Shown here: positions 13,257 to 33,032 of the stretch, one piece after another
Layout: every line of letters starts with the position of its first letter
How positions within the stretch are numbered: the first letter of the stretch is position 1
Assembly: GCA_963556255.1 (NCBI GenBank)
Contig: OY744613.1
Span: 34,887,055 to 34,951,054, forward strand
DNA: 64,000 bases
From: Allolobophora icterica
Taxonomy: Eukaryota > Annelida > Clitellata > Crassiclitellata > Lumbricidae
Direction of reading: 5' to 3'
Notes under the pieces: model-generated
Told to the model about the DNA's origin: nothing
The model's input: only the letters and a program-made list of their open reading frames with translations
Databases searched by the model: none
Translations under genes and position numbers: made by a program

Positions 13257-13574
13257 AGTAGATTGGATACGGGGCTTTGAACTCATGCGCTACAAAAAGC
13301 CGCTTGATATAAAGACTATCTCTACAGAAAAGGGTCCACAGAGGCCTACAGGATCCACTGACCCCTATCAAAGATCGGTTTCCAAGAAGTGTCTGTGGCT
13401 ATCATGGCTTAGAAGTCTTTTGAATCATGGCGCTAAGTGGATCTTTGAAATCAGGCTGAATAGAAGTCCTTTGATATAAAGGCCGTCTCTAAGCCAACTC
13501 GGCCAAAGCCAAAAAATAAGGATCACGGATTGCCTTAACACATCAAACCGTGAAAGTGTCGTTTGCTGCCGGCC
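13257..13574 (+). repeat. Left terminal inverted repeat of the Polinton
   Basis: It starts AGTAGATTGGATACGGGG and matches the inverse of 31242-31559 over about 318 bases, with one G/A difference noticed near the inner end. The sequences diverge after GCCGGCC. A 64-codon open frame repeated in both TIRs is a by-product of the repeat. Confidence 0.95.
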
Positions 13575-13705
13575 GAGACCCTCCCACGAGGCCGGCTCAA
13601 ACTCGTGTGTGTGTGTGGTGGTAAACATTGTAGCCCACTAATCGTACGGCGGTGGTGCGCTAGGAATTACAGACTCACTACTCCAACCACCAAGGATGAA
13701 AATTT

Positions 13706-14311
13706 TTATATCGCGGTTCGCGGAGAAGACCCAGCGCTGGTTAGTTTCTTGATTAGTTCTGCCACCACCTGGTCTTTGCTTTGACTCGGCAACTCTTTTT
13801 TTCCATTCTTGCTTTGTATATCACGTTTCATCGTTCTATATTTCTCCTCCTCTCCTAGAATAAGCTTGTATTCTTCATCGCTAATAGCCGTGTCCTCCAA
13901 CGCCTTAGAAATGTGGTCATGAACAGTGTTTAGCTTACTCTCCGCCAAAATACAAATTTCGTCGTGTTTTGAAGCTTTAGCAACAAAACTTCTACTAATA
14001 ACATTCCCGATAATATCCAAGAAACTCGTAGCTATGGCTAAACTCTCTAGAACAATACCAGGAATAAAACCAATACCAGTGGCTAACATAGCTGCCCCAC
14101 CCACCCCAGTTCCAAGACTCACCATAGCAAGGCCGGCCGAGGTCCCATTAGCCACATCTACAACCCTCTTATACTTCTTGCACAGTTGTCCTCGACTTAT
14201 CGCCTCGGACCTCAGGAATGCTTCTATTTCGCCAATCTTCTGCAAACGAAATGTTTGCGACGTTGTGTCTGACAAAATTGTTGACTCCGTAAGCGTTGGG
14301 TACAAAGACAT
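13706..14311 (-). CDS. 201-aa protein with a glycine-rich hydrophobic core (unknown)
   Basis: Last gene of the minus-strand virion cluster, 5 bases after the stop of the 184-aa gene. Residues about 55-105 are strongly hydrophobic and rich in Gly/Ala (GTGVGGAAMLATGIGFIPGI), flanked by charged, probably helical segments. This is the layout of a membrane-inserting or pore-forming helical hairpin. The C terminus is lysine- and glutamate-rich. I do not recognise a named family. Its position beside the fibre-type genes suggests a virion or entry accessory, but that is inference. The frame is intact. Confidence 0.7.
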   Translation of the reverse strand: MSLYPTLTESTILSDTTSQTFRLQKIGEIEAFLRSEAISRGQLCKKYKRVVDVANGTSAGLAMVSLGTGVGGAAMLATGIGFIPGIVLESLAIATSFLDIIGNVISRSFVAKASKHDEICILAESKLNTVHDHISKALEDTAISDEEYKLILGEEEKYRTMKRDIQSKNGKKELPSQSKDQVVAELIKKLTSAGSSPRTAI

Positions 14312-14316
14312 TGTTT

Positions 14317-14871
14317 TTATAGTTGCTCTATCAGTAACGTTATGTTTAAGTCGATAGATGAAGTACTTTCAATGCCTCTCTTTTTGCCTTCAATTCTAAA
14401 ACTCGTTTGTCCTGGAATGAATATTGCCCTAGATGCATCAAATTGCCCACTTGAAATATCGACTGTACGATCGATGCTACCACCAACAGCTGCCGGTGCT
14501 ATAACGCGAACTGTTGCATCACCACCGCAAACACCAAAGACTGTAAGCTTCCAGAACCCGCACTCTAACGAGACCCCCTCATTGGTGGTTTGCAAAGTTA
14601 TACACGGAAAACGCGCAGCGGTCAATGGAAGAGTTTGCCACGCACTCGTGGTTACCGTTCCGGCCGCCGTGTAGATATCGCGGCTGTGGTAATCGTCAGA
14701 CACGAAGTCGATGTGTTGTTGAGGCACCGCGGTCAATAGCTCTGCGGTGGGCTTCGGGATGTTGTACCCCCAGTGGCCTACATCACCTAGACTGTCTATG
14801 CTGTATTTGCACATGTCTATTTCTCCGTGTTGACGGAGATACCCCCGAATCTTGTAGTGCGTGTCAGTCAT
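14317..14871 (-). CDS. 184-aa beta-rich protein, possible capsid surface or spike component (unknown)
   Basis: It lies between the fibre-like gene (stop at 14878, 6 bases away) and the hydrophobic 201-aa gene, as part of the same tightly packed cluster. The protein is rich in T, S, V and I, with alternating patterns typical of beta sheets (TAAGTVTTSAWQTLPL, FWKLTVFGVCGGDATVRVIA), and has no signal peptide or transmembrane helix. It could be a knob, cement or jelly-roll-like protein. No family is recognised and the role is inferred from neighbourhood only. Confidence 0.68.
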   Translation of the reverse strand: MTDTHYKIRGYLRQHGEIDMCKYSIDSLGDVGHWGYNIPKPTAELLTAVPQQHIDFVSDDYHSRDIYTAAGTVTTSAWQTLPLTAARFPCITLQTTNEGVSLECGFWKLTVFGVCGGDATVRVIAPAAVGGSIDRTVDISSGQFDASRAIFIPGQTSFRIEGKKRGIESTSSIDLNITLLIEQL

Positions 14872-14877
14872 ATTTTT

Positions 14878-17049
14878 CTATACTACTGACTGTCCCCCGT
14901 GTCTAAAATATGTATAGATCTGGAAGTGGGATATTCCAAAAGTAGGTTGTGGTGGGCTGGTGGCCAAGACCATCAGCCTGAATTTTTTGTATACTCTGTC
15001 ATCAGTGAAGGTGAACTCTTGTGCAGAATTAGTCAAAGTGGCAGTGGAGGAAATGAGAGCATTGTATCTCGCCGAATCGGTGGATGGAGTCCCATAAATC
15101 TTCCAGGACGTGATACGTGGTGCAGTAGGACTAGATCCCCCAGCCAGGCTAACCTTCCATACTCGCACAGGCGTCGGGCATTCAATCTGTAACCAAGTCC
15201 CACTAACCTGAGCCAAAATATCGGCTCTCGATGTGGACGCCGTCTTCCACTCACCTCTCACACCCGAGTTGAAGGCCATATGAGGCGGGTTAGTGGGTAA
15301 AGATTCGTTGGCTGAGGCAATAAAACCCGTTTCGGAAACGTTTCTGGATAGGGGCGGAATATGGCCGCTGTAGTTGAGAACCTTGATGTCCGTCGCGTAT
15401 CGCCTTTCATTAGCTATCTCACTGTCTACATACCGCTTGTTAGTCAGGTACCATGGTCCCGAGGGCGGCGTATCATTTTTCGTAGTGGCGTTGGTGATCA
15501 GCTGCGTCACTTGTTTAAAACTCACAGCGTCGCTATCGGATCCTGAAATTTCTGTTGGGCGTCCAGTCACTCTTTTACCACCCATAGCCAGATCACCGGT
15601 CATGGTACTGCCGGATTTGAGCACGCATGCGCTCCTAACGATAACATCTTGCTCGTTGGCGTACCTCTTAGCAGCATCAACTTTCTGGTCCGCATAGAGT
15701 CTAACGGAAGCTCCAATCTCAGCGTTTTTCACGTCAACGTATCGTTTATTTGTCACATGCAACGGTTCTGTTGGTACTCTATCACTCTTTGTCATGTTGT
15801 CGGCGATCAGCTTCGATACTTGTGCCATACTCGTCGCGTCGCTTTCGGACGTTGCTGCGCCCGTAGGGAGCCCAGTAACTCTTTTGCCGCCCATGATTAA
15901 ATCACCAGTCATTGCATCACCAGCTTTAAGCACGCATGCGCTCCTAACGATAACATCTTGCTCGTTGGCGTACGTCTTAGCAGCTTCAGCTTTCTGGTCC
16001 GCATAGAGTCTAACTGAAGCTCCAATCTCAGCGTTTTTCGCGTCCACATACCGTTTGTTAGTCAAGTACTTTGGTCCAGCCGGCGCCGTATCATTATTCT
16101 TAGTGGCGTTGCTGATCAGCTGCGTCACCTGTTTCAAACTCGCGGCGTCGCTATCAGATCCTGGAATTTCTGTTGGGAGCCCAGTCACTCTTTTGCCACC
16201 CATGGTCAAATCACCAGTCATAGAATCGCCGCTTTTGAGCACATGCCCGCCTCTTACGATAGCATGCTTCTCGTCCACATATCTTCTAGCGGTGGTGACC
16301 TTCTCATCCACGTACTGTCTGTAAGAAGCGTCGCGGGAATCTACATACCGCTTATTCACCACATGCAAAGACTCCGTTGGTACTCTATCGAGTTTTACTA
16401 GAGCGCCAGCGACCGCTGTTGACACTTGTTTCCAACTCGCTGCGTCGCTATCGGATCCTGAAATTTCTGTTGGGAGCCCAGTAACTCGGTGGCCGCCCAT
16501 AACTAAACTTCCAGTCATTACGCTGCCTGATTTCAGCACGCACGCGTTCCTGACGATAACATCTTGCTCGTTAACATAACTTTTAACAATAAGGTCCTTG
16601 TCATCTGCATACCGCCTAACGGAATCTCTCAGCCCCGCATTCTTCTCGTCCGTGTACTGCCTGGCATCGATAATCTTTTGGTCTGCATGATTTTCGGCTG
16701 CGGTCGCCTTCTGGTCCGCGTATCGTACCACTTGTGCCCAGCTCGCTGCGTCGCTTTCAGACGCTTCTGCGTCTGTGGGCAGCCCAGTAACTTTGTGACC
16801 ACCCATTTTTAGAACGCCAGACATCGTTCCACCGGTGATTTGTAGGTTGTCCTGATCTACGATGTCTGCATAAGCCTTTGTCGCGGCGTCCGTGTCCATC
16901 GTGGGCGTTCCCACATTTGTCAGCCGAAAACCTCCAGCCGATAGAATTCCCAACATGGTATCACCAGCCTTGTGGACAAGCCCAGCGGCGCTTATCTGCC
17001 CCCCTCCCACCCCACCTCCACCGTCTCTTCCAAATTTATCAACCGGCAT
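14878..17049 (-). CDS. Fibre-like protein: phage-tail-type repeats plus C-terminal discoidin-like domain (723 aa)
   Basis: I chose the Met at 17049 (MPVDKFGRDGG) because the upstream Met at 17106 would overlap the protease gene. After a Gly-rich N terminus come six modules of the form M-T-G-x-L-x-M-G-G-x-x-V-T-G-x-P-T. They start near residues 31, 75, 176, 276, 378 and 482, so the last five are spaced about 102 residues apart. Helical, coiled-coil-like linkers (YVDEK, YADQK repeats) separate them. Such modules are typical of trimeric bacteriophage tail fibres. From about residue 570 the sequence changes to a beta-sandwich pattern (WLQIECPTPVRVWKVSL, ITSWKIYGT, FTDDRVYKKFRL) resembling F5/8 type C/discoidin sugar- or lipid-binding domains. 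It is probably a vertex fibre with a receptor-binding tip; function inferred. Intact. Confidence 0.85.
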   Translation of the reverse strand: MPVDKFGRDGGGGVGGGQISAAGLVHKAGDTMLGILSAGGFRLTNVGTPTMDTDAATKAYADIVDQDNLQITGGTMSGVLKMGGHKVTGLPTDAEASESDAASWAQVVRYADQKATAAENHADQKIIDARQYTDEKNAGLRDSVRRYADDKDLIVKSYVNEQDVIVRNACVLKSGSVMTGSLVMGGHRVTGLPTEISGSDSDAASWKQVSTAVAGALVKLDRVPTESLHVVNKRYVDSRDASYRQYVDEKVTTARRYVDEKHAIVRGGHVLKSGDSMTGDLTMGGKRVTGLPTEIPGSDSDAASLKQVTQLISNATKNNDTAPAGPKYLTNKRYVDAKNAEIGASVRLYADQKAEAAKTYANEQDVIVRSACVLKAGDAMTGDLIMGGKRVTGLPTGAATSESDATSMAQVSKLIADNMTKSDRVPTEPLHVTNKRYVDVKNAEIGASVRLYADQKVDAAKRYANEQDVIVRSACVLKSGSTMTGDLAMGGKRVTGRPTEISGSDSDAVSFKQVTQLITNATTKNDTPPSGPWYLTNKRYVDSEIANERRYATDIKVLNYSGHIPPLSRNVSETGFIASANESLPTNPPHMAFNSGVRGEWKTASTSRADILAQVSGTWLQIECPTPVRVWKVSLAGGSSPTAPRITSWKIYGTPSTDSARYNALISSTATLTNSAQEFTFTDDRVYKKFRLMVLATSPPQPTFGISHFQIYTYFRHGGQSVV

Positions 17050-17077
17050 TTTTATATACAAAAATGGTGACGGAAGT

Positions 17078-17503
17078 CTAACATAGGTCAAGAATGATAT
17101 CTTCAAAATTCTTTCCAGCAGTGAGCTCTCTTAGCACGGTCAGGCAGAGATGACCACAGACCACATCATCGGGACCCTGCAGCTGGAACGTCTGTGTTCT
17201 TATGGAACGGTTTAAATATCGAGCGATTTCGGTAGGCGGATCCAGCCCATAACTGTCAAAATAGACTGCTATAGGTCCATCTATCCAATAGGCGACCCAG
17301 TGAGTACCATCGCCGGAACCGGAATCTAAATTAACAACTCCACACTCCTTCTCACGAGCCACGGCTGGCAGACCATCTCGCATGAAAACACCGCGGAAAT
17401 GCGGCAGACCTCGGGCGACTTTCTCTATGTCAAAGTTGCTCAACGGTTTTAGTTTTTTTGCCCGATGTAGTAGAGACCGGATCGTTTGCACTTTGAACAG
17501 CAA
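17078..17503 (-). CDS. Adenain-like (Ulp1-type) cysteine maturation protease
   Basis: At 141 aa this is short, like other Polinton proteases. The visible catalytic layout is His in THWVAYW (about residue 67), an acidic residue in VYFDSYG, Gln in FQLQGPDD, and the nucleophile Cys in VCGHLCL (about residue 115). This is the His-Asp-Gln-Cys order of adenovirus protease. It would cut capsid precursors during virion maturation. Likely targets in this cluster are the pX- and pVI-like proteins, which carry Gly-Gly sequences. The start at 17503 overlaps the end of the pX-like gene by 55 bases, and no later Met precedes the conserved LSNFDIEKVARGLP segment. The frame is intact. Confidence 0.92.
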   Translation of the reverse strand: MLFKVQTIRSLLHRAKKLKPLSNFDIEKVARGLPHFRGVFMRDGLPAVAREKECGVVNLDSGSGDGTHWVAYWIDGPIAVYFDSYGLDPPTEIARYLNRSIRTQTFQLQGPDDVVCGHLCLTVLRELTAGKNFEDIILDLC

Positions 17504-18024
17504 CCACCATATGTCTGGCGCCCGAGATATAAACCGGTTCCACGGACCTGAGCTTCGAGTTCGCGATTGTGACGCGCGGCCTCTGCTAAAGCCGCGTCGT
17601 CGATCCGTTTTTTCTCGGCTTGGGCCGCATCGCTGGCCTGTTTCTTGCGCAGAGCCTCTGCATCGCTGGCCTGTTTGTTGTGCACGGCCTTTGCCACCTC
17701 GGCGGCCCCTCCAGCCGCGGCACCCACCGCGGTTAACCCGCCAAAAATCAGCGGGAGGAGAGCCAGTAGTGGAAGAAATCCGCCCGATTTTGTCATCTTT
17801 TTCAGTTGCGTTTTGGTGAATCTCAGCTCCATGCCAACGCCTTCCGAAATCTTCTTCACGATTCGGGCGGCTTGAACTTTTGTCAGCGCGAGCTTGTCGT
17901 CTCCGCGAAGCTGGCCATGAGTGAGCCGGATCGTGGCGCCAGTGCCGGCGCGCGCAGCTTTAGCCAATGTTTGCTTTTGCCCTTCGGTCAGTGAAAGACC
18001 GAACGCAACGTATTCAGTTTTCAT
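17449..18024 (-). CDS. pX-like minor virion protein (191 aa)
   Basis: It begins with a basic segment that repeats a 'TxxQ..LAKAARAGTGATIRLTHGQLRGDDKLALTK' style pattern (residues 1-80). A hydrophobic stretch FLPLLALLPLIFGGLTAVGA follows (about 83-105), then an Ala/Lys-rich coiled region with QASDAEALRKK and QASDAAQAEKK repeats, and a Cys-rich end (GGCCSKCKR). Proteins with this N-terminal pattern and a central glycine-rich hydrophobic segment sit between capsid and protease genes in many Polintons and adintoviruses, where they are compared with adenovirus pX. DNA-core or membrane association is inferred. It overlaps the protease start by 55 bases and lies 55 bases after the capsid gene. Confidence 0.8.
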   Translation of the reverse strand: MKTEYVAFGLSLTEGQKQTLAKAARAGTGATIRLTHGQLRGDDKLALTKVQAARIVKKISEGVGMELRFTKTQLKKMTKSGGFLPLLALLPLIFGGLTAVGAAAGGAAEVAKAVHNKQASDAEALRKKQASDAAQAEKKRIDDAALAEAARHNRELEAQVRGTGLYLGRQTYGGCCSKCKRSGLYYIGQKN

Positions 18025-18079
18025 TTTTGCAAAAAATATATCTAGAAGGGGGCCATTTTTCTAAATGTGATTATGGGAA

Positions 18080-19375
18080 TCAGTAGACAACGTTGAATTT
18101 GCTGCCATCCGATTCAAAATTCAGGAGTCGGTCGCTGATCAGGACGGCATATGCTGTCGTATTATTTGGTACCACTTCGTTAAAGTCCACCTTGATTTGT
18201 ATGTCCTGTACAGAGGTTTTTAGTCGTTCAGATTGCCTGCGCACGTCCAGGACGAAGATCGGAAACATATCTACAAATTCGACTGGTGTCAGTTGGCATG
18301 ACGATTCACGCGCGTCTATACCGCAATATTCTTCCTTGAAGTCACGTAGGGCTTTGTAAGCGCGAGAGGTTGTCCTCTTAGTGAAGTCGAGATTCATGTC
18401 AACCACCGGGTATCGATCGCTGTTGAGCATAGCGAAAATGTTGCGAACCTGCACATGGTCAAACAGTGCCGGATTCTGGCCTTGATGTGCATTCTTTCCA
18501 GTTTGAAAAGCAACAAGAATCCAGCGTGGCTTTTCCGTGCCCGACTTAACGCTCAAACGCCAGGAAAAAGTAGTCGCTCGTGGCACCGCAATGTTGTCGC
18601 ATTGCATGGCGCGGAATGCCACAGGTACCTTAACCTTGGCTTCAATCTGCTTCATAAGCATGCTTTTATACTCCAAAGCGGGTATTATATGCGGCATGAA
18701 CCAGGAGAGTTTAGTCAGCGCGATCTGGCCATTGGCCGCAGCGGCTTCCTTGAAGATCGCGTCTGCATCTCCCTGCCGGCTCAGCAGTAAGGAGTGTTTA
18801 ATCCCGTATACGACTTTGTGGTAATCATCGCAAAAGCCGAATAGATGTCTTAAGGGAACGATGAATGAAAATGTGCCAATAGGGACGGGTTTTCCAATGA
18901 TCATCAGTCGACGGGCCTCGAAGCCGATATTCGCGGTCGCCGCCGCCGCACTCGTGTCCTTTTGCCAACACATGTTTAAACCTTCGCCTTTGGAAAAATC
19001 ATCGCCGTAAACCAGCATGCCTTTCATCGTCGTGGCTTGCCCAGGAGACATGACATTCTCTATCTCGGTGTTGTTAGCCAGGTATCGAATCTGAGAAAAC
19101 ATGTACGGGATGGCGTTGTTGATAAATGACACCAACGAGTCTGCGATGTAAGCCGCGCCAGTTGTTGTAAGCCTGCCCTCCACAAGAAGGTAACTCTTAG
19201 AAGGCTGCGTGAAAATGTCTTGGTTCTGGATGTCTATCTGTATGGCCTGGCCATTGTTGATAGCCGCGGGATTTTGTGACTCATACTCGCGGTATTCAAA
19301 CGATTCGATGCTATTGTCATCGGGCACCGCCGAAGCGATGTCCAACATTTCACTCGGCACGTCAAATGCCGCCAT
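18080..19375 (-). CDS. Major capsid protein (double jelly-roll, hexon-like), 431 aa
   Basis: Position (between pVI-like and pX-like genes), length and motifs fit the Polinton major capsid protein that forms pseudohexameric capsomers. The N terminus has the family-like pattern SFEYREYESQNPAAINNG, followed by beta-rich segments (QIDIQNQDIFTQPSKSYLLV, SFINNAIPYMFSQIRYLANN) and MKGMLVYGDD. The end is SDRLLNFESDGSKFNVVY. No signal peptide or membrane segment is present and no stop interrupts the frame. Assignment rests on recognised similarity to Polinton and adintovirus hexon-like proteins in metazoan genomes plus synteny. A structure prediction would show two consecutive eight-stranded jelly rolls. 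Confidence 0.92.
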   Translation of the reverse strand: MAAFDVPSEMLDIASAVPDDNSIESFEYREYESQNPAAINNGQAIQIDIQNQDIFTQPSKSYLLVEGRLTTTGAAYIADSLVSFINNAIPYMFSQIRYLANNTEIENVMSPGQATTMKGMLVYGDDFSKGEGLNMCWQKDTSAAAATANIGFEARRLMIIGKPVPIGTFSFIVPLRHLFGFCDDYHKVVYGIKHSLLLSRQGDADAIFKEAAAANGQIALTKLSWFMPHIIPALEYKSMLMKQIEAKVKVPVAFRAMQCDNIAVPRATTFSWRLSVKSGTEKPRWILVAFQTGKNAHQGQNPALFDHVQVRNIFAMLNSDRYPVVDMNLDFTKRTTSRAYKALRDFKEEYCGIDARESSCQLTPVEFVDMFPIFVLDVRRQSERLKTSVQDIQIKVDFNEVVPNNTTAYAVLISDRLLNFESDGSKFNVVY

Positions 19376-19489: not shown

Positions 19490-19981
19490 TTATTTCGCGA
19501 GAAACAGACCCCGCGCATGAATCCGCGAACGCGAATGAAATTCATTTGCGTTTGCGTTTGCGCCGCCACGACTCGGCTTTATAGTCTTGAAACCGGATCC
19601 AGCAATGCGGCTGTTTATGTCAGCCATTGTCGGAACAACGGGTGGCGGACTAACAGCCAGTTGTTTTAAGTACTCGATGCTCTTGTCGCTGAGCGCCTTC
19701 TCCAAAGGTGCGGGAACCGCTCGCGAATGAGTTTCATTAGCGTTTGCGCCGGCAACAGCACGTCTCGCTTTCACGGCATCAACGATCTGCCTGACGGCAG
19801 ACGCTGTTGTGGCCCCAGCTTTCACCACATTACCAACTACATCGGCAACGTTTGTTATTACGCCTTTATTCGCCGAAATGAAGGAGCCTGCACGGCCAAG
19901 AAAGCCCGCGATTTTGGGTATCCAGTCGAAAAGTCCACCACCCACTACACGACGCCGCTTTTTAATTCCAAGAACCAACAT
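19490..19981 (-). CDS. pVI-like amphipathic minor capsid protein (163 aa)
   Basis: I chose the Met at 19981, because starting at 20011 would overlap the penton-like gene. The protein starts MLVLGIKKRRRVVGGGLFDW. A basic patch and Gly-Gly-Gly (a plausible protease cleavage site) precede an amphipathic helix WIPKIAGFLGRAGSFI, and a long Ala/Val-rich helix follows. This resembles adenovirus pVI and Polinton equivalents, whose N-terminal amphipathic helix disrupts endosomal membranes. The C-terminal half carries two ANANE(T/F)HSR repeats whose DNA contains palindromic motif sites 2 and 3. The gene is between penton-like and capsid genes and is intact. Role inferred from composition and synteny. 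Confidence 0.78.
   Translation of the reverse strand: MLVLGIKKRRRVVGGGLFDWIPKIAGFLGRAGSFISANKGVITNVADVVGNVVKAGATTASAVRQIVDAVKARRAVAGANANETHSRAVPAPLEKALSDKSIEYLKQLAVSPPPVVPTMADINSRIAGSGFKTIKPSRGGANANANEFHSRSRIHARGLFLAK
19531..19549. promoter_or_regulatory. Palindromic motif site 2
   Basis: GCGAATGA-AAT-TCATTTGC. The symmetry extends outward to AAC...GTT, giving 11-bp arms with one mismatch. Inside the pVI-like coding region. Confidence 0.6.
19722..19742. promoter_or_regulatory. Palindromic motif site 3
   Basis: CGCGAATGA-GTT-TCATTAGCG, 9-bp arms with one mismatch and the same 3-base spacer. Inside the pVI-like coding region. Confidence 0.55.
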
Positions 19982-20003
19982 TAGAATATTTAAGTGTGAA
20001 CAT

Positions 20004-20804
20004 TTACGCACTGCGGATGTGAAACCTTATAGTTACTGTCTCACCGCGGAGGTTTAATTGTTCACCATTCTGGTCAGTCAGCCAAACACGAATGCCCTGT
20101 ACGTTGCCAGCCGGTGCTACTGGTAGGTACACTAGATTTTTCGGAGACTCGATTACCTTGTAGCCGGGCGACACATCCGGGAAAAAACTGTAGATTACTG
20201 GCAGCTGGCTACCATTTCGATATGATCCAGAGATAATGTCGCAATTTACCAGGATTGTGTCCACCCGGAGAATATCGACTGGATTTTCTCCCTCTTTATA
20301 ACCAATACCAAGCCTCTGAGGGTTAAAACCAAGCATTTGCCTGATAGTAGATTGCATCATATTTACCTTATATAGGGCATTCGTAATTTTTACGAAGGCG
20401 CGTAGGGTAGATGCGTTAGCTCCTATGGTAATAGGAGAATTAAAGCCGAGTGGTGTCACACCCGTCGGAGAATTTTGCTTTTCTAACTGCCTGCCGATTT
20501 CATCATTAATCTGTGCGATCTCGTAGCTTCCGTCGGGCAAAATGATCGTCTTCCACGTCACACCATTGTCGGTGCTGTAGACGAACTTGTTATTTGTGCT
20601 ATCGATGTTGGGAATCGAATTATAAGTTTCAAGATTGACCAAAGCAAGCTCATAGCGTCTTTTTGGATCCAGGTACAGCGGTGGTGAGAAAGCCGTGGTC
20701 CACCCTGTAGTATCTGAGGAAACAACAAAACAAAAAGTTTCCTTAGGCTGCAAAAGGTCTCGAATTTCTTCGAGCAGTTTCTCCGAGCGTTCCATCTGAG
20801 CCAT
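20004..20804 (-). CDS. Minor capsid protein (penton-like, single jelly roll), 266 aa
   Basis: It is upstream of the pVI-like and major capsid genes, the usual Polinton order. The start MAQMERSEKLLEEIRDLLQ is a short helical head, followed by a beta-rich domain. Segments such as RRYELALVNLETYNSIPNI, PDGSYEIAQINDEIGRQL and IRQMLGFNPQ are characteristic of Polinton and adintovirus penton-like proteins. The C terminus ends in basic strands (VTIRFHIRSA). It would form the pentameric vertex capsomer, and the fibre-like protein at 14878-17049 is a candidate to attach to it. The frame is complete and its start is 18 bases downstream of the 81-aa gene's stop. Confidence 0.88.
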   Translation of the reverse strand: MAQMERSEKLLEEIRDLLQPKETFCFVVSSDTTGWTTAFSPPLYLDPKRRYELALVNLETYNSIPNIDSTNNKFVYSTDNGVTWKTIILPDGSYEIAQINDEIGRQLEKQNSPTGVTPLGFNSPITIGANASTLRAFVKITNALYKVNMMQSTIRQMLGFNPQRLGIGYKEGENPVDILRVDTILVNCDIISGSYRNGSQLPVIYSFFPDVSPGYKVIESPKNLVYLPVAPAGNVQGIRVWLTDQNGEQLNLRGETVTIRFHIRSA

Positions 20805-20822
20805 GAATTTTGTTTTCTATTT

Positions 20823-21068: not shown

Positions 21069-21107
21069 CTGTACGAGCTTTTTAAAAGTTTCAATTGCTT
21101 GAGGCGA

Positions 21108-21194
21108 TTATTGTTTAGTCTTAACGAATCGTTTCGTTAGTAGATTGAACAACGACTCATCGGCCGGAGATTCGAGAACGAGGTTACCACCTTT
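21108..21194 (-). pseudogene. Out-of-frame 29-codon tail of the 243-aa gene
   Basis: Past the stop of the 243-aa frame (21193-21195), a +1-shifted frame runs 29 codons to a TAA at 21108-21110. It encodes a charged, helical-looking segment with LLTKRF near its end. It fills an otherwise unusually large gap in the compact cluster. The likely cause is one extra base in the TTTAAA run, by mutation or sequencing error. Programmed +1 slippage is possible but not supported. Confidence 0.55.
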
Positions 21195-21924
21195 AAACAC
21201 TCAGTCTACCGGCAGACAACGCGACGGGGTCAACGGAGAGCTCACCCAAGGCGTTGCCTTGTAATTTCAGAGGAACGGCTGGAACACTGAAACCCTTTCC
21301 TTTTTTAGTGAGGGCGTGGCCTTTCAATAGCAAACGAATTCGATCTCTGTAGTCCTGTAGGACGCCGATATCTACGGCCAGCGCATGTACCTTTTCTTCG
21401 TCTCCGTTCTTATTGGCCTTCCTTTTCTCTTTGCCCAGGGTGTGGCGATTATAATAATTTACGCCTTCGATTATCTGTTTCACAGCTGCCGTGTCGTTCA
21501 GGTCGAGCTCGCTCGGAGGGGTAAAACCGTGCCGCCTGATTGCATCGACGTTGAGATGTCTGTTTGGGTGGACGAGCAATGCTTCCTGAGCGGGGTGTGC
21601 CGCAATCGCCGGAATAGCCGTTGGAGCAGTTGCTCCAACGGAATCACCGAACAACGCCGCTATCGGGTTAAAATTAGCAGACTCTGAAATCTGCGCCGGC
21701 AAATCCTGTAAAGCGCTGGTAACTTTCTGCAGCTCCTTGGACGTAGCCGCCTGGGATTCAGCCGTGGCTGTGGCTATTGGTTTGAAAAGCTTTGCCGCAT
21801 CGTACTGAAGATTGGCTTCACCGAGCTTCTCATCTACGAAACGCTGTCTCAATCGATTTCTCCGAGCTAAATAATCCTGAGTCAACGCGTCTCGCTCCTG
21901 TTTAGACGAAACTTTTGTCCACAT
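21193..21924 (-). CDS. 243-aa virion-cluster protein of unknown function, probably truncated by frameshift
   Basis: First gene after the ATPase in the minus-strand cluster. The N terminus is helical and basic (QDYLARRNRLRQRFVDEKLG, then LFKPIATATAE). The middle is Ala/Pro-rich, and the second half contains HPNRHLNVDAIRRHGFTPPS and IIEGVNYYNRHTLGKEKRK. This arrangement (basic coiled N terminus, KLFKPI motif) recurs in Polinton proteins of unknown role between packaging and penton genes. The frame ends abruptly at 21193 next to an alternative frame that continues to 21108, so the native C terminus has probably been lost. No catalytic motif is visible. Confidence 0.75.
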   Translation of the reverse strand: MWTKVSSKQERDALTQDYLARRNRLRQRFVDEKLGEANLQYDAAKLFKPIATATAESQAATSKELQKVTSALQDLPAQISESANFNPIAALFGDSVGATAPTAIPAIAAHPAQEALLVHPNRHLNVDAIRRHGFTPPSELDLNDTAAVKQIIEGVNYYNRHTLGKEKRKANKNGDEEKVHALAVDIGVLQDYRDRIRLLLKGHALTKKGKGFSVPAVPLKLQGNALGELSVDPVALSAGRLSV

Positions 21925-21964
21925 CGTGGTTGTATGTCGACTATATGTTGCCTATATCATGTCT

Positions 21965-22651: not shown

Positions 22652-22689
22652 ATAGAGACAACGAGTTATGATTGTATTCAACGAAAACA

Positions 22690-23283: not shown

Positions 23284-23296
23284 AAATCATTTGTGT
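23274..23296. promoter_or_regulatory. Palindromic motif site 4
   Basis: GCAAATGA-AAA-TCATTTGT with one mismatch; symmetry extends one or two bases outward. It spans the PLA2-like stop codon and lies about 40 bp before the preferred integrase start. Confidence 0.55.
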
Positions 23297-23333
23297 ATGT
23301 GTTTACCTGTTTGTAATATATAGTATTACTGAA

Positions 23334-24347
23334 ATGTCTAAGCACCTTTCAGCCGTCTATTACAGCCCTAGAGGTTACTGGCGAGGTAAGGCTGCGGTGA
23401 AGAAACTAGCCTCAGCCGCCAAAGTTTCCGAGGCGGAGGCTCGCGATTGGCTGAAGAAACAAGCTGTGTGGCAGATTTATCTACCCGTTCCTCGCCCCAT
23501 ACCGCATCCAAAGTTTGAGGAAAATAGACCAAACGCCGTACACCAAGCCGATCTCTTGTTTTTACCTCACGATAAGGTTGGCCGCAAGACTTATAAATAC
23601 GCCTTGACTGTTGTCGATGTTGCTTCAAGATACAAAGAAGCTGAACCGTTGACTGATAAAAGTGCGGCTGAAGTCGCCGCCGCTTTAAGCCGGATCTATA
23701 AGAGGGGCCCATTAACTTGGCCTCGACTCTTTCAGGTCGATCCTGGACGCGAATTTATGGGTGATTTTACACCATTGCTAGCGAAGCACGACGTTCTTGT
23801 AAGACGCGGACAGGCCGGTAACCATCGTCAACAGGGCATCGTTGAACGCTTTAACCGTACTCTAGCTGAGCGACTTTTCGGTGCCCAGTACGCTCAGGAA
23901 TTGCTCCTGGCTGCAAGGGGGTCATCCGAACGGTCAGTGGAATGGGTTCGCCGGTTGCCCGATGTTGTAGCTGCACTAAACGATGAGCCGACGCGTTTGC
24001 TCGACTTGAAGCCGGTTGAAGCGATGAAAGCTGCTAAAGTGACACAGAAGCCCTCTCATTCACAAACTAAAGGTCGTTTATGGGGCTTGGATGAGCCTGT
24101 TCTCGGGCACGACGTTCTCGTCCGATATTTATACGCTCCAGGCGAGCTCGAAGGTGGAAGCAAACGTGCCACCGATCCTAACTGGTCGCTCACCATCCAC
24201 GCTATTTTGGATGTTGTTCGGCGGGCTGGCCAGCCGGCTTTATACCATCTGGTAGACGGTCCTGCCCGCGGATTTGTACGCGAGGAGCTGCTTCTGGTGC
24301 CTATGGGCACTGAGTTACCCCCCGATAGAATACTCAACCGTCGTTGA
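23334..24347 (+). CDS. Polinton integrase (rve/RNase H-like DDE family), 337 aa
   Basis: The Met at 23334 (MSKHLSAVYYSPRGYWRG) is preferred over the ATG at 23280, which overlaps the PLA2-like stop and would add a hydrophobic leader. The catalytic triad is visible: Asp in VHQADLLFL, Asp in LFQVDPGREF, Glu in GIVERFNRTLAERL. An N-terminal YWRGKAAVKKLA helical region precedes the core. After the core comes a small beta-rich tail (DPNWSLTIHAILDVVRRAGQ, YHLVDG) as in other Polinton integrases. It inserts the linear element at staggered target sites, producing the flanking AAAGT duplication. Intact. Its 3' end overlaps the convergent polymerase stop by 14 bases. Confidence 0.95.
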   Translation: MSKHLSAVYYSPRGYWRGKAAVKKLASAAKVSEAEARDWLKKQAVWQIYLPVPRPIPHPKFEENRPNAVHQADLLFLPHDKVGRKTYKYALTVVDVASRYKEAEPLTDKSAAEVAAALSRIYKRGPLTWPRLFQVDPGREFMGDFTPLLAKHDVLVRRGQAGNHRQQGIVERFNRTLAERLFGAQYAQELLLAARGSSERSVEWVRRLPDVVAALNDEPTRLLDLKPVEAMKAAKVTQKPSHSQTKGRLWGLDEPVLGHDVLVRYLYAPGELEGGSKRATDPNWSLTIHAILDVVRRAGQPALYHLVDGPARGFVREELLLVPMGTELPPDRILNRR

Positions 24348-27300
24348 TTTTGTAGTGCCCATATGCCAGCGTTGTTATCCCATCGGCCTCGATCCACTTT
24401 TTTGTGTCTAATGGAGAGAGGCTGATCTTATTCTGCTCGTACACTCCGATCTGGTGGTCGTGGCTTCTAATCACGACTTGTGTGTGCCGCATCTCTTCTC
24501 GTTCGAACAGGCACTCCTTGTATAGCTCGTGGTGCAGATCCTTCTTCACAACTGCTCTCTGAACGCCTTTAGCTTTCCTGATCTCTGAACCACCCGATTT
24601 TAAGATCGAGTACATCTTCGGACGCAGCCCTACGAATTCAGCGATGGCCACTCCGTTACATTCATCCTTGAACTTACCCACGACTTTCTTGTTCTCGACG
24701 TCGTAGTATGGGCTGTCTCTAGGAAACTCGGAGAGGTCGTATAGGTGTTTTTTGTTCCACATATCGACATAGGTGTTCGGAGTTTCCACCTGAAATAAGA
24801 GGCTGTCAGTGTCTGTGTACAAGAGTTGAGCATTGTTACCGTACTCGTTTTTCACATCGTTGTACCAGAAGTCGTACATCAGATGCTTGCTGAGGTCGAG
24901 GACCGCCTGGCCGACATATACAGGTCTGTTTAACTTGAGCTTGTTCTTCAAACTGTGAATCGCGGCGAGTTGGTCGTTGAAGATTTTGTGCGATATGTAG
25001 GCCGGGTCCGCAATTAGTTTACGAAGTTTGTCAACTTTTGAGGTCGGGACCAGGTTGACCCTGATTCTTTTTCTAAGATTTTCCATGGTCTTTCCAAAGA
25101 CCGCATTATTAGCCAGCTTGAAGAAATCCTTCTCAAATTCCGACGTTGCCTTCGCCCTCAATTTTGTATTCATCCCGATGTATGGAGCCATCCACGCCTC
25201 CTGTCTAAACTTAATGGCACGATGAATTTTAGCAACTCGTAGGCCTAACGAGTGGTAGAGTTTAAGATTTCGGTAATGAACCACATACCGCTCCTTAGGT
25301 CGTAGGCTGGGTGCTAACTTCACATGCTTTGTGAACTTGCCTCCCAACTCGTTCATAAGCACATTCTGATAGTCACTCAACCACTCCCCTTGGACTGTCA
25401 GGGTCTACGGTGCTAGGGGATAGTCATTATGAGCAATGTGGAGGTGCTCCGGGTACCCGAGATCGACTTCAAGTAGGAAGCCTTCAGGCGCGTCGTCTGG
25501 AGTTTCCAACACTTCGTCGAGAGTTGGACTTTCCCAGCTGAATGCTCCAACTGGCAATGGCTGTTGCATCGCCCAGCCGTAGAGGTTATTAGCATCGAGA
25601 TACATGATCCAGTTTTCTGGCTTCGTGGTATCGTAGTCGGGGCATTGTGGGTTGTTGGCTTTTGCGAAGCGCTTAGATACCATCGAGATTCCACCTCGGA
25701 GACCTTTCTCTACGAACAAATGCATGTCTATATCGGTGAGAAGTTCGAGCTCGATTTTCGTCTTTTTCAGCAAAGCGTCCCAGGCCATTCCTGGCAGGCT
25801 GAAGTAATTTGCCGGATCTAAACTGTAGTGTTTCATCGATGTGTTTCTGAAGGTCTCGAAGACATCTGCGAGTAGAAGTACATCCGTGCGGAGATACAGG
25901 TCGTGATAGTCGCCCAGAGTTTTACAGTCGAATTCATTCCATACTCTTTGGGCGTGTTGATAATCCTCATCAGAAATGTTCTCTCGGGACAGCCTGCTGT
26001 AGAACGCTTCTTTGGGTGGAAGTCGGTCTTCTTCGAAGCGGTGGTAATCGTCAATGTGCTCGTAACAATATACGCCCTTTCGCCTCAAAAGATCTAGTTT
26101 TGTCCTATCATTGTGAACGAAACTTTCCTTTATATATGCTGTTGTGACTTTCAGATCCTCTAGCGACAGATTTCCTGATAATTTATCCAACGAGCTGTTT
26201 AGAAACTGGAGACTATCGATGAACTGCAGTTGTCCTATGTTGAATGTCATGTATTTCTCCATATTGTTTGGGATGCAGTTAATATCAGTTTCCTCATCCT
26301 GTGCGGCCTCACAGCTGCCTATCGCTTGCATTATGAGGTGGCTGTCGTAACCTCGTAGATTGTGGAAGACCACTGGTACCTTGCACTTATCTGGATATAT
26401 TCGAAGCTTGAGGTTGCAGGCGTTATGAGCAGCACCTCGGTACTTACCAGTAATGTGACAGTGGTCGCGAACTCTATCCCCTTCGAGCGCTTCTCCGCAG
26501 ATATGACATTCGTTAGCCTCGCGGAATGATTGGCGATCGGCCGGTGACATAACCATCTTAGCTGGGGTGGCCAGCCTTTGCTTGATAGTGGCTAGCTCGC
26601 CTTGTAGTCGTTGCAGGAACTCTGGCACGGCGTTCTCTCCACGATATAGAACTGGTTTCTTGGTGCGGCCATCGCATCGAACTACTATATAACAAAAACT
26701 ACATGGTTTCTGCTCAGCTATCTGTCTTGTATTGCTCTCGTTAGGGTTCATGGCCGCATTGATGACTGGCACGTTCAACGCCTCGAAGTCTGCGTAAACG
26801 ATATACGGAGTGCGCATCTGTTTGTGGTGGTTCTGGAATTTGAGGATATTTTCATCCTCTTTTGGCATCTCAATCCGCTGAGGCTTCTGACTAATGCCCT
26901 GACAATCTTTGATATGGGCATCCAGCAAGTCTTGTCTACAGAATATGTGAAGGCAGCGACGGCATGGGTGCTTCCGCTCTTTATGATCGCTGTTTTTGTA
27001 CAGCATTCGGGCCAAGTCCTTGATCCAGACATAGTGATAATTCTGTAAAGGAAAAGTCTGCAAATGAGCTTCATTTGCGTTTACGTCGCTGGCCAACAGT
27101 AGAAGATCAATATTGTGAACTCTAGTCTCGGTTGAGACATGGATTGGATACAGCCCTCCATTCCATCCGAAGACTGAGACGCTTATATTTTGGTTCTGGC
27201 GTTCGAACTTACCAATATCAGTGACCTTCACTGGAAATTCTACACCGTCGAAGTTTAGCTCGTGGAGGTGAGCCTGATACTTAGTTGGGCGATTCGGATT

Positions 27301-28059
27301 TTGATCTGCTGGGTACATTGCGCTTAGTATGGCCCACTCGAAGCAGCGATTATCGTTGTTTTGCACGTTAATAACTGAGCGGGGTGGCACATACTTCGGT
27401 GTGGGAAAGTAGCTCTTACCTCGGAAAGGCTTATATCTTGCAAAACTGAGGTCTAGCGACACGACCCGCTTCACTCTCCACCCCGATCCCTCATTGGTAT
27501 ACTCCTCGAGGAGTTGTAGTACTTCGGCCTTGGCCTTCCGTATAGCCCCTTGGACTTTACCTGCATTGGTAATTGGTGCTGCTGTGCTTCGAAAGTAGGC
27601 GGTATTGGTAATGATGCCGGGGGGCGCGTTGCCACCATACACATTATCAACGGTCGGTGCCAACTTTTCCAAATCAACAGTCAACACTTGAGAGTATTTA
27701 AAACCGCCATTTTTCAAGAGCTCTTCGTTGAGTTGCGCCTCAATATTCTGCTCCATTGCACTCAAGAAAGCCAACGCATCTCCTTCCAGCCTGTGGTTTA
27801 AAGGTACTTCTGCACGGAAGTCTCTCAGATGCTGATTGGCGAGCTCTCTGTACACTAGAAAGGGTGGTGGTCCACCTCTATCCTTCTTATTTAAGAGTGG
27901 GTCGAATTGTGCCAGAAGGGCCATACGTTTTAACCCTCTGCGCATACGCACTGGAGGAATTGGCCTTGGAAGCAGTGGCTGTAGTAAGCGCCTTTTGACC
28001 GCATCTGGGATAGCTTCGTCTAACAATTGTTCAATTTTTTCATTCGTAGACAATGCCAT
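24334..28059 (-). pseudogene. Protein-primed DNA polymerase B interrupted by one in-frame stop
   Basis: The reading frame runs from the Met at 28059 (MALSTNEKIEQLL) to 24334, about 1240 codons, with a single TAG at 25405-25407. Both sides are in the same frame, so this is a nonsense change, not a shift. Visible parts are: a C2H2-like finger (CRRCLHIF, AHIKDC, about residues 363-385); Exo I YADFEAL (about 424); an HNH-like zinc module CHICGEALEG...RDHCHITG (about 516-550); Exo II FHNLRGYDSHL (about 570); Exo III YLRTDVLLLADVF (about 725); polymerase motif A YLDANNLYGWAM (about 820); the stop at 885; motif B KLANNAVFGKTMEN; and motif C YTDTDSL. The family replicates linear DNA from a terminal protein. 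As read, the product would lack motifs B and C and be inactive as a polymerase. Confidence 0.94.
27060..27078. promoter_or_regulatory. Palindromic motif site 5 (perfect arms)
   Basis: GCAAATGA-GCT-TCATTTGC, perfect 8-bp arms with a 3-base spacer, within the polymerase coding sequence. Confidence 0.6.
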
Positions 28060-28397
28060 AGTTATAAATTGTTTGATACTAATCCATGGTAATATCAGTC
28101 TCATCCATTGTCAATAGTATACCTCAGAAGTTATTACTACTAATACTATAGTCGGAAGTTATTTATACTAATACATTTAAAAAATTTGTTAATTTTAATT
28201 ATTTATTTATACCTGATATTAAATTATGGTCTGGCGTCTCCAACCGCAGATAATAATAGCCTATATTCAATTATGGCCAGGCGTCTTCAACAGCAGACAA
28301 TACTATAGTCAGAAGTTATTTGTACTACTACTATAATCAGAAGTTATTTATACTAATACTTTAAAAATTTCGTGAATTTTAATTAATTATTTATTTT
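28060..28397. other. Spacer between polymerase and zinc-ribbon genes with a direct repeat
   Basis: AT-rich. A phrase of about 110 bp (ACTATAGTCGGAAGTTATTT ... TACCTGATATTAAATTATGG, 28146-28228) recurs at about 28292-28415 (ACTATAGTCAGAAGTTATTT ... GCCTGATATTCAATTACGG) and runs into the end of the zinc-ribbon gene. Promoter for the polymerase is expected here but not identified. Confidence 0.65.
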
Positions 28398-28676
28398 TTA
28401 TGCCTGATATTCAATTACGGTCAGACGCTTACATTCGTCTTGAAAGATGCTTTCATCTCGCAACTTTTTCAGTCTAGCAGCCTTGTAGCCACAACCCAGG
28501 CAAAGACCTATTTTATTTTTCACCGCCTTTCCACAACCTATGCACGGCTGCGTACCACCACCCTTTCTCAGTCTTAATAAGTGAAGTTTGCAATAAACTC
28601 CTAGGCAGCTATTACCACATATGTCTCTTGTCCCAATTACCAACCACGCACAAAGATTTTTGCCCTTCATTTTCAT
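28398..28676 (-). CDS. Small zinc-ribbon protein of the Polinton (92 aa)
   Basis: A Cys/His-rich protein with an evident metal-binding pattern: CAWLVIGTRDICGNSCLG, then YCKLH, a linker, then PCIGCGKAV and LCLGCGYKA. Two treble-clef or ribbon modules are likely. Small proteins with the CxWLVxGTRxxCG...YCxxH pattern recur next to polymerase genes in metazoan Polintons, to my recollection. Nucleic-acid binding or regulation is plausible but unproven. The C terminus (IFQDECKRLTVIEYQA) lies in the directly repeated segment, so the last residues may derive from repeat sequence. Confidence 0.78.
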   Translation of the reverse strand: MKMKGKNLCAWLVIGTRDICGNSCLGVYCKLHLLRLRKGGGTQPCIGCGKAVKNKIGLCLGCGYKAARLKKLRDESIFQDECKRLTVIEYQA

Positions 28677-29307
28677 AGATAATTATATATACCCAATATA
28701 AAACTTTATCTAATTGGTTTATCAAATAGTTAGTCAAAGCAATAGATTAATATCCAAAGGGTTTAGGTTGGCAGTAAAAACGGCCTACAGCGGCTCAGCT
28801 GGCTAGCCTTTATTTTTAAAGCATATATTTTTCATTTATGGATTGGCCAAAACGATGTCTCGATTTCGATTCTTCCTCTTCCCTTAAAACTGTCCGACTC
28901 ATTGAAGCATTTGGATTTTTTGATCCCCACCTATCGATTATGATTTGACTGAGCGCTTGTGAATAGGCTGCACGACTTCGCCTTTTGTGCGCTATAGAAA
29001 TCTCCAGAGTACTATTACATTGAACCGTATGACTGATTGAACTGATTTGACTAAGCACCTGTGAATAAGCTGGGGGGTTTTTTGCGATCACTTTTGGTGC
29101 TACAGAAGTTCAACAGAGCGGCTTGTCCAATGTATCCTTTATCTATAGAAAGCTGATAGCCATATAAAATTGACCATGGTGCTGTATAAATTCCCTCTAA
29201 TAAAGACCGGCTCTAAAAACAGTCTTGGTTTAAAGGTAACGCGTTTCTGAAAACAGCTCCGAGATTCTCGTGGTCTGTTCCACGAAGCGCATTGAGAGCT
29301 CTCTTTA

Positions 29308-29545
29308 GAAAAGAGAATGGCATGTCAAGAATGTTATCCTGGCAACGCTAGTGGTATTTTTAGATATGATGTAATTGTGCTATAAATATTTTCCGTGGTC
29401 TTTGGTTTCGTTAAGCTGCATCGAGAGGTCTCGCCAGAAGAGAGAATGGCATGTCAAGAATGTTATCCTGGCAAGGCTAGTCCTATTCTTAGCTATGATG
29501 TAATTGTACTATAAATATTTTTCATGGTCTTTGTTTTCGTGAAGC
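29308..29545. repeat. Tandem duplication, period about 129 bp
   Basis: AGAGAATGGCATGTCAAGAA at 29312 recurs at 29441, with matching downstream sequence through ATGATGTAATTGT and CTATAAATATTTT. Confidence 0.9.
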
Positions 29546-30656
29546 CATATATTCGAGTCTGCCCAATAGTTAAACTTCAATGTCTGGGTCAAGACTCGCC
29601 CTGGTGCTAAATAAATTCTCTTTTGCATTTCTCAGTCTTAATTTAAAAAATTAACACGTTTGAAACACAGGCTTGATGTGTCCAGAACCTGGAAAACCTG
29701 AAAAAATCCAAAACACTGACTCAATACGCTTAATGAATGGTTGTGGGCTGAAGGCAGAGTTCGCAGCAGATGGTTATGCAAACGTTAGGGTGGCCTAAAA
29801 AATATCTGCTGCTTCGGGAGAAAAATCAGTTAAACAAAGCCAATAGGCTATATGAAAAATACGCAATATTTCTGGGCCACCCTATTCTGCGCAGAGCCGT
29901 AGGAAAACACAGCCTACAGCCCGAGGGCTGGCAGTCCGCACGCGTCGCCTGTAGACACGCCCTGTTTCCGGCTTCAGCTTGAATCAGCGGCCTTTGTCCC
30001 AGCTGGCGAACTTTGACCTGCTCAAGCAACAACAAAATTTATTCCTATCGGCGGTGATTTTAGCACCAAAAGCAAGCGATGATTGTAAAATAAGGAAAAC
30101 AACATTGATTAACCAGTAAAAAAGACTATGTCGATACTAAAAGGCATTTACATTTTAAATATTTACACGGTTTCAATAAATCTATTCATTCGGTAAACAT
30201 ATAATTATAGGCCTAGGCATAAAGCGGATATAGAAAACAGAGCAGTCCCTTAAGCCAGCCTAAATATAGAGCGGTTTTTCCGCCAGAAACGCAAGCGCTG
30301 CTGTATAAATGAAACAACATTGGTTGCCTTGTAGAGACTATGTCATATATAATCCTAGTTTTAAAAACATTTAAATGGTTTCAATAAATCTACTCCAGAA
30401 TATTTATTTTTCATAAACTGATTTTCATTCAGTAAAACATATAGGCCTAATCGGATAAATAAGAACAGTCCCTTAAGGTAGTCATGAATATTAAATATTA
30501 GCGACTTAATTTTCTTAGCCTCCGTATATGATGGTGGATGGCCAGTCGTCTCCCTCACCGTCTCATCTTCCCACCGACAGTTTACAACTAGTGGTAGAAA
30601 TCTAAAAATAATTTTAAAAAATCTGACAGGGTTTTAAATCTCGACCTGTCGAGTCA

Positions 30657-30823
30657 TCCATCCATCCATCAGTCCATCTATCAATTCTTCCATCCATCCA
30701 TCCATCCATCCATCCATCCATCCATCCATCCATCCATCCATCCATCCATCCATCCATCCATCCATCCATCCATCCATCCATCCATCCATCCATCCATCCA
30801 TCCATCCATCCATCCATCCATCC
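30657..30823. repeat. (TCCA)n microsatellite
   Basis: More than 30 uninterrupted tetranucleotides, plus a few degenerate ones at the left end, in the Polinton right arm. The 'WMDG' repeat proteins readable here are artefacts. Confidence 0.96.
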
Positions 30824-31241
30824 ACACATTCATTAGTTCAAACTGTTTTCCTTTCATCCAACGCATAATGCCCTGTAGATAACTGAACAAAGACTTACCT
30901 TCACTATAGCTCTTTGCCACCGTCTCCTCTATCCTGAGAAAATCCTTTGCCTCTTACGAGAAAAACGTTGAAAATTTAATCTTTTACCGAAGCATTGTTG
31001 ATAATGTTTCGAAGTAAATAAATGAAGCTATAAGCTATAAGCTATAAGCCATATTAGCCTCTGAACCAAAAGCCAGTCGAAACCGGATCTATAAACGAGG
31101 CATAGGCTAAGCCTAATGCAGCGTTAGCACAAACAGTATGGAAAGCTCTTGCCGTCATAAACCTGAATTATCCATGTAAATTATAGGACAGTTGTTTGGG
31201 CTACATAAATGCAGTTTTATCATTTATGTACTAGGCCGGTA

Positions 31242-31559
31242 GGCCGGCAGTAAACGACACTTTCACGGTTTGATGTGTTAAGGCAATCCGTGATCCTTAT
31301 TTTTTGGCTTTGGCCGAGTTGGCTTAGAGACGGCCTTTATATCAAAGGACTTCTATTCAGCCTGATTTCAAAGATCCACTTAGCGCCATGATTCAAAAGA
31401 CTTCTAAGCCATGATAGCCACAGACACTTCTTGGAAACCGATCTTTGATAGGGGTCAGTGGATCCTGTAGGCCTCTGTGGACCCTTTTCTGTAGAGATAG
31501 TCTTTATATCAAGCGGCTTTTTGTAGCGCATGAGTTCAAAGCCCCGTATCCAATCTACT
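31242..31559 (-). repeat. Right terminal inverted repeat of the Polinton
   Basis: Inverse of 13257-13574, ending CCAATCTACT. AAAGT at 31560-31564 is the right target duplication and continues into TATTA, exactly as in the empty site at 5721-5731. Confidence 0.95.

Positions 31560-33030: not shown

Positions 33031-33032
<2 letters not shown>

What the first reader, a model, noticed from the sequence alone, without database searches (positions are those of the whole stretch)
13257..31559. Near-complete Polinton inside an Ig-receptor intron, dated by a paralogous empty site in the same window
The target AAAGTATATTA is uninterrupted at 5721-5731 in duplication unit 1. In unit 2 it is split by the 18.3-kb element with AAAGT on both sides. 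The insertion is therefore younger than the tandem duplication. Nearly identical TIRs and an almost intact gene set suggest recent mobility.
Basis: seen in the sequence. Interest (0 to 1): 0.85.

Follow-up and report, generated by a model that had tools for sequence, protein, structure and literature searches.

The report
Recent Polinton insertion with empty-site relatives
A large virus-like mobile element jumped recently into an intron of one copy of a duplicated immune-type receptor gene, three sister copies still show the untouched site, and its relatives in the same genome look like a recombining virus population with a variable attachment tip.

Summary
Confirmed: 13257-31559 is a complete 18,303-bp Polinton/Maverick with 318-bp inverted ends (317/318 identical) and a 5-bp AAAGT target duplication, in the intron between the V-set and second Ig-like exons of receptor unit 2. 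Unit 1 and two paralogues outside the window have the site intact, so the insertion is derived. Ends differ by 0.3%, units by about 9%: the insertion is much younger than the split of the units. It need not post-date the duplication itself: block D beside the genes is 99.6% alike between units, so an exchange about as young as the insertion also happened. This copy's polymerase has an in-frame stop, and no protease was recognised. Beyond the finding: 43 of 50 other scored copies keep an uninterrupted polymerase frame. In 21 copies studied, chosen by polymerase score, all have target duplications (19 exactly 5 bp), the capsid frame is intact and constrained (dN/dS 0.05), TIR type, fibre block and a third gene occur in all pairwise combinations, and the fibre's CBM32-like head varies most in three alternate loops. 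Best reading: recent integration from a replicating, recombining virus-like population; particles untested.

The parts
13257..31559 (.). Polinton/Maverick element, 18,303 bp
13257..13574 (+). left terminal inverted repeat, 318 bp, begins AGTAGATTGG
   Evidence: 317/318 identical to the right end
31242..31559 (-). right terminal inverted repeat
13252..13256 (+). target-site duplication AAAGT, left
31560..31564 (+). target-site duplication AAAGT, right
5721..5731 (+). empty target AAAGTATATTA in unit 1
13706..14311 (-). 201-aa ORF, unknown, membrane-like by eye
   Evidence: 201 aa in 21 of 21 copies
14317..14871 (-). 184-aa ORF next to the fibre, unknown; differs together with the alternative fibre block
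   Evidence: structure model too poor to use
14878..17049 (-). fibre-like protein, 723 aa: conserved N-terminus, repetitive shaft, C-terminal F5/8C (CBM32-like) head
14881..15390 (-). fibre head used for the structure model
17449..18024 (-). 191-aa ORF with two allelic forms in the genome (about 190 and 168 aa); weak Adeno_PX match
18080..19375 (-). double-jelly-roll major capsid protein, 431 aa (PF21738, E 8.9e-56)
19490..19981 (-). 163-aa ORF, unknown
20004..20804 (-). 266-aa ORF, candidate minor capsid (penton) protein by position only; weak DUF5901
21193..21924 (-). 243-aa ORF, unknown
21965..22780 (-). packaging ATPase (Pox_A32, E 3.3e-8)
22690..23283 (+). DUF5679 + phospholipase A2-like protein
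23280..24347 (+). retroviral-type integrase (rve, E 5.5e-11), frame intact
25405..28104 (-). DNA polymerase B, N-terminal 899 aa (DNA_pol_B_2, E 3.8e-13) and the stop that ends this ORF
24334..25404 (-). rest of the polymerase frame, behind the in-frame stop; same frame
   Evidence: no Pfam match on its own
28105..31241 (.). mostly non-coding accessory region with a tetranucleotide array near 30630-30837
31630..31926 (-). unit 2 V-set exon (limits worked out from splice sites); its donor lies about 65 bp from the right target duplication
12475..12788 (-). unit 2 second Ig-like exon (start from splice site; end not determined)
4527..7437 (-). unit 1 gene part (V-set exon 5800-6096, Ig-like exon from 5248 down)
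9526..12037 (.). block D of unit 1
33031..35793 (.). block D' of unit 2, 99.4-99.8% identical to D, with a SINE-like insert at 34321-34562

Best explanation
A Polinton (adintovirus-like endogenous virus) integrated recently, most likely through its own rve integrase with a 5-bp staggered cut, into the intron between the V-set and second Ig-like exons of one member of a tandem receptor family. Shown: element, ends, target duplication, three empty paralogues, intact splice sites, truncated polymerase frame. Inferred: the integrating molecule came from a population of related elements that replicate and recombine with each other and probably form particles; each copy's two ends were made alike during replication just before integration, so end-to-end divergence dates the insertion; the fibre's CBM32-like head is the attachment tip and its alternate loops are diversified by host or receptor pressure. 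The host gene probably still splices, since exons and splice sites are intact, but that was not tested. The confidence given here is for the insertion and its order; the particle and attachment part carries the probability given in the section on the most novel reading.
Against: No particle, transcript or extracellular genome was seen; the one scan of viral contigs with the capsid protein found no relative. This copy has a polymerase stop. The copies were the best polymerase matches, so intactness is biased upwards. Over all 21 heads the median dN/dS is 0.80, and 0.63 among the four alternative ones. In the variable loops pS is raised too (pN 0.31, pS 0.24), so the ratio of 1.28 does not by itself prove positive selection, and strand 110-115 beside a loop is variable as well (pN 0.25). 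The CBM32-type fold is shared with proteins of other functions (muskelin, APC10, IFT25), so it shows no sugar binding. No protease was recognised. Homogenisation of ends by conversion after insertion is not excluded.
Confidence: 0.82

Rival explanations
1. The insertion pre-dates the physical duplication: a filled allele and an empty allele, already 9% apart, were brought together in tandem by unequal crossing-over.
For: Block D/D' differs by 10/2520, no different from the ends at 1/318, so the last exchange between units is about as young as the insertion.
Against: Two more empty paralogues at K2P 0.167-0.179 show an old family; 9% allelic divergence would be very high; the third V exon in the window is only slightly more distant from unit 1 (92.7% against 93.9% identity), as expected of old paralogues.
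Confidence: 0.15
2. Ordinary within-genome transposition of a resident family, supplied in trans by intact copies, without particles or reinfection.
For: At least 50 other copies in the genome, 43 of them with an uninterrupted polymerase frame; this copy has a broken polymerase frame.
Against: The capsid gene is under strong purifying selection across copies (median dN/dS 0.05), as are three neighbouring ORFs of unknown function (0.13-0.24), whereas a capsid gene not needed for transposition should drift; the fibre head varies on a conserved framework.
Confidence: 0.3
3. Old insertion whose ends were homogenised by gene conversion, with the empty paralogues due to precise excision.
For: Conversion between ends cannot be excluded from one genome.
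Against: Three empty paralogues would need repeated exact losses of element plus one target copy; ends diverge by up to 11% in other copies, so they are not always kept alike after insertion.
Confidence: 0.03

Closest known systems
Polinton/Maverick elements of vertebrates (PMC8097293; abstract, first part of Results and first part of Discussion read)
   Same: Polymerase B, rve integrase, ATPase, major capsid protein, long TIRs, terminus beginning AGT, purifying selection on core genes, size within their 12.7-24.6 kb range
   Different: 5-bp rather than 6-bp target duplication; no recognised protease; polymerase and capsid genes share a strand while integrase and PLA2-like gene lie on the other; fibre with CBM32-like head, not mentioned in the parts read
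Adintoviruses (Starrett 2021; not held; recalled only)
   Same: animal-associated, polymerase B plus integrase plus double-jelly-roll capsid
   Different: no extracellular genome seen here
Polinton-like viruses of protists with phage-like fibres (PMC12220804, passages read)
   Same: fibre proteins with sugar-binding domains; discoidin (F5_F8_C) is among the domains listed
   Different: those are protist elements; here an animal element with allelic fibre blocks and variable head loops within one genome
Mavirus-like EMALEs of Cafeteria (PMC8547959, passages read)
   Same: integrated virus-like elements compared with empty sites; 3-5 bp target duplications predominant, 5-6 bp for mavirus; recombination between elements
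   Different: virophages of a protist

Membership tests
Polinton/Maverick | family B DNA polymerase of the viral/organellar type | tested here: met
   DNA_pol_B_2 E 3.8e-13, (frame interrupted by one stop in this copy)
Polinton/Maverick | retroviral-type (rve) integrase | tested here: met
   rve E 5.5e-11
Polinton/Maverick | A32-type packaging ATPase | tested here: met
   Pox_A32 E 3.3e-8
Polinton/Maverick | double-jelly-roll major capsid protein | tested here: met
   PF21738 E 8.9e-56
Polinton/Maverick | minor capsid (penton) protein | tested here: inconclusive
   266-aa ORF at 20004-20804: DUF5901 (below cut-off) and a weak BNR repeat only; no PDB sequence match
Polinton/Maverick | Ulp1/adenain-type protease | tested here: inconclusive
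   none among the 13 ORFs scanned against Pfam at E up to 0.1; a divergent one is not excluded
Polinton/Maverick | long terminal inverted repeats | tested here: met
   318 bp, 317/318
Polinton/Maverick | short target duplication made by the integrase (6 bp typical; 5-6 bp in mavirus) | tested here: met
   present in 21 of 21 copies; length 5 bp in 19, 6 bp in 1, ambiguous in 1; so the usual 6-bp length is not the rule here
Adintovirus-like virus | polymerase B with integrase and capsid genes in an animal genome | tested here: met
   definition recalled; animal host inferred from the V-set receptor family, species not named
Adintovirus-like virus | encapsidated extracellular genome | not testable with these tools
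   only a viral-contig scan was possible; no relative
CBM32/F5-8C fold (fibre head) | discoidin-type beta sandwich | tested here: met
CBM32/F5-8C fold (fibre head) | binds a glycan | not testable with these tools
   -

The most novel reading that the evidence does not exclude
This animal's genome archives a living swarm of Polintons that still form particles, reinfect the germ line, reassort gene modules and diversify the sugar-binding tip of an adenovirus-like fibre in three alternate loops, under host or receptor pressure: an animal Polinton whose sequence record shows virus-style attachment-protein evolution.
Probability: 0.45. Interest if true: 0.82.

Novelty: new variant of a known kind. 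Interest (0 to 1): 0.6.

Why it matters
Whether animal Polintons are transposons or viruses that still make particles is an open question (the abstract of PMC8097293 says that particles have not been observed). Here one genome offers several tests at once: a cleanly dated insertion with three empty paralogues, many copies with open polymerase frames, capsid genes under strong constraint, exchange of modules between copies, and a variable attachment tip. It also gives a ready presence/absence marker for population work.

Tried and rejected
A 6-bp duplication AAAGTA with a one-base loss at the left end was considered for this copy and rejected, because 19 of 21 family copies show exactly 5 bp. 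An array extending next to the window was sought: 10 kb on each side gave no match; the two extra paralogues lie about 29 and 38 kb before the window. The structure of the 184-aa protein was predicted but is unusable (pLDDT 40). Capsid, 266-aa and integrase proteins and the head profile have no sequence match in the PDB at the limits used. Capsid against annotated phages: none. The host species could not be named: the receptor search gave 8 proteins without names. Genome-wide searches with the right end, the integrase, block D and the TIR terminus were asked for and never answered, so true copy number, and whether D is a repeat elsewhere, are open. Literature searches; no listing or passage seen describes variable fibre heads in animal Polintons, but only five papers were opened, each in part, and Starrett 2021 is not held, so this is no proof that it is not in print.
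Full report
WHAT WAS CLAIMED AND CHECKED. The target AAAGTATATTA occurs twice on the + strand of the window: at 5721, and at 31560 directly behind the element. The left flank ends in AAAGT. The inverted ends match over 318 bp with one mismatch, at position 309. Host flanks joined with one AAAGT align to unit 1 with no gap at the junction.

HOST SETTING. Three V-set exons lie on the minus strand (5777-6148, 31622-31969 and 60017-60391; V-set E 7.9e-7, 9e-8 and 3.4e-8), each followed downstream by an exon that resembles a second Ig domain by eye; Pfam does not name it at its cut-off. Five full-length relatives from a protein collection were read; by eye they carry a signal peptide, the V-set domain, the second domain and a hydrophobic stretch. 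Splice donor and acceptor of the filled intron are intact. From those sites the intron is about 18.8 kb against 0.55 kb in unit 1, and the element ends about 65 bp from the V-exon donor.

DATING. Unit 1 and unit 2 differ by K2P 0.080 left of the site (first 400 columns left out) and 0.096 right of it; the ends differ by 0.003. With 1/318 the 95% interval of end divergence is 0.0001-0.0174, so on equal rates the insertion falls in at most about the last fifth of the time since the units split; the point estimate is about 3-4%. A genome search found two more copies of the intron, at C13:34848487-34849433 and C13:34857242-34858194, both contiguous. In the four-way alignment all three empty copies read through AAAGT, u1-u2 is K2P 0.092 and the outer pair is at 0.167-0.179 (917 shared columns). 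One insertion on the unit 2 branch explains this. The third window unit matches only in its exons and says nothing about the site.

Block D (9526-12037) and D' (33031-35793), next to the genes, differ by only 10 of 2520 sites. This is not distinguishable from the end divergence (Fisher p = 1). Unless D is a repeat, which could not be tested, a recent conversion or unequal exchange between units took place at about the same time. What is shown is that the insertion is younger than the divergence of the unit lineages, not that it follows the physical duplication. D' also holds a 242-bp A-tailed insert absent from D, a second filled/empty pair.

THE ELEMENT. Pfam names the capsid protein (PF21738), ATPase (Pox_A32), PLA2-like protein, integrase (rve) and polymerase (DNA_pol_B_2). 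The polymerase frame has one in-frame stop, at codon 900 of 1257, the last being its closing stop. No protease was recognised among 13 ORFs. The integrase frame is intact. The capsid search found 1,030 relatives (best 120 listed), the nearest at 82% identity and some at 78-79% on metagenome contigs of 5-11 kb; named ones are from a scallop at about 52%.

THE FAMILY. The polymerase search scored 51 copies including the window (53 rows, two of them pieces of listed copies), out of 2,543 unchecked first-look candidates; the left-end search had 1,408 such candidates with 40 scored. Of the 50 other copies, 43 have a frame of 1,194 aa or more without a stop in the matched part, 6 have one stop and one is short. 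These are best matches, so the fraction is biased. All 21 have target duplications, 19 of exactly 5 bp, one of 6 bp, and one lying in a microsatellite. TIR identity ranges from 89.0 to 100% with a median of 99.0% over aligned lengths of 177-320 bp, and 6 of 21 are identical. Left and right termini are of the same type in each copy, although at least two types (AGTAGAT, AGTAGGG) exist in the genome, which fits copying of the ends during replication and supports TIR dating. The intact vertebrate elements have 6-bp duplications (PMC8097293, Results, first part); in mavirus 5-6 bp and in EMALEs mostly 3-5 bp are reported (PMC8547959, passage).

VIRUS-LIKE EVOLUTION. The capsid frame is 431 aa in 21 of 21 copies; median dS is 0.096 and median dN/dS 0.052 on the 185 of 210 pairs with dS above 0.02. 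Median dN/dS is 0.13 for the 201-aa gene (21 copies), 0.17 for the 191-aa gene (16 of 21, the five short alleles left out), 0.24 for the 184-aa gene (19 of 21) and 0.47 for the fibre (15 of 21); copies were left out where the frame was under 93% of the window's length. Tiles along the left 6 kb show a sharply bounded alternative fibre block in 4 of 21 copies (C13a, C4b, C3c, C121) and a separate alternative form of the 191-aa gene in 5 of 21. TIR type, fibre type and this allele occur in all four combinations for each pair of loci, one of the combinations in a single copy (C3c); nearby-site incompatibility lies below all 1,000 permutations for three genes and at 7 of 1,000 for the fourth; the 184-aa gene was not tested. 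C121 differs from C5a, C4c, C11a, C11b and C4d by 1-2 nt of the capsid gene, yet has the other fibre.

THE FIBRE HEAD. In 15 standard fibres the shaft has median dN 0.020 and dS 0.083, the head dN 0.125 and dS 0.120 (dN/dS 1.04 on 89 pairs, 49 of them above 1); over all 21 heads the median is 0.80 and among the four alternative ones 0.63. The model of the head (16 sequences, pLDDT 74, pTM 0.76; one variable loop is poorly predicted) matches CBM32 and other F5/8C-type domains. In 12 distinct standard heads the most variable stretches are the loops after strands 48-51, 92-102 and 124-127; the loops in between are more conserved (pN 0.31 in the first set, 0.09 in the second, 0.06 elsewhere). Strand 110-115 and the C-terminal tail are variable too (pN 0.25 and 0.20). 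Alternate loops of a sandwich tend to share one end, so a single variable tip is likely, but I had no coordinates to show it. pS is raised in the same loops (0.24 against 0.11 and 0.07), so exchange of old loop alleles, or hypermutation, is as good a cause as point-by-point positive selection. With the four alternative heads included (16 distinct heads) the contrast in ratio between the loop sets vanishes (1.02, 1.00, elsewhere 0.61), though the contrast in pN remains (0.40, 0.19, 0.12).

JUDGEMENT. What lifts it above an ordinary insertion is the population behind it. Particles, transcripts and polymorphism remain untested.

Noticed in passing
9526-12037 and 33031-35793: Blocks D and D' are 99.4-99.8% identical beside gene parts at 91-92%: recent conversion or exchange, or a repeat; copy number elsewhere not obtained.
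   Followed up: partly
34321-34562 and 47683-47919: 242-bp A-tailed SINE-like element, second copy 97.5% identical; D at about 10807-10814 is its empty site.
   Followed up: partly
L003, L004, L005: Three Polinton copies on C8 (2.58, 2.64, 2.83 Mb) share the same 25 bases of host flank: one insertion probably copied by a segmental duplication.
   Followed up: no
L062, L063: The two outer receptor paralogues differ by 3 of 917 sites, a recent duplication.
   Followed up: no
L041, L047: A 334-aa accessory ORF near the right end of two copies (C6b, C4c); absent from the window copy, while the stretches held for the other 18 were too short to show it.
   Followed up: no
22690-22780: Start of the PLA2-like ORF overlaps the start of the ATPase ORF on the other strand.
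   Followed up: no
7438-9526: 2.1-kb stretch found in unit 1 only (window and 10 kb on each side searched), at an AAT repeat, with an imperfect palindrome at 7588-7929.
   Followed up: no
23280-24347: Integrase residues D91, D154 and E189 look like the catalytic triad with 34 residues between the last two (by eye; motif recalled).
   Followed up: no
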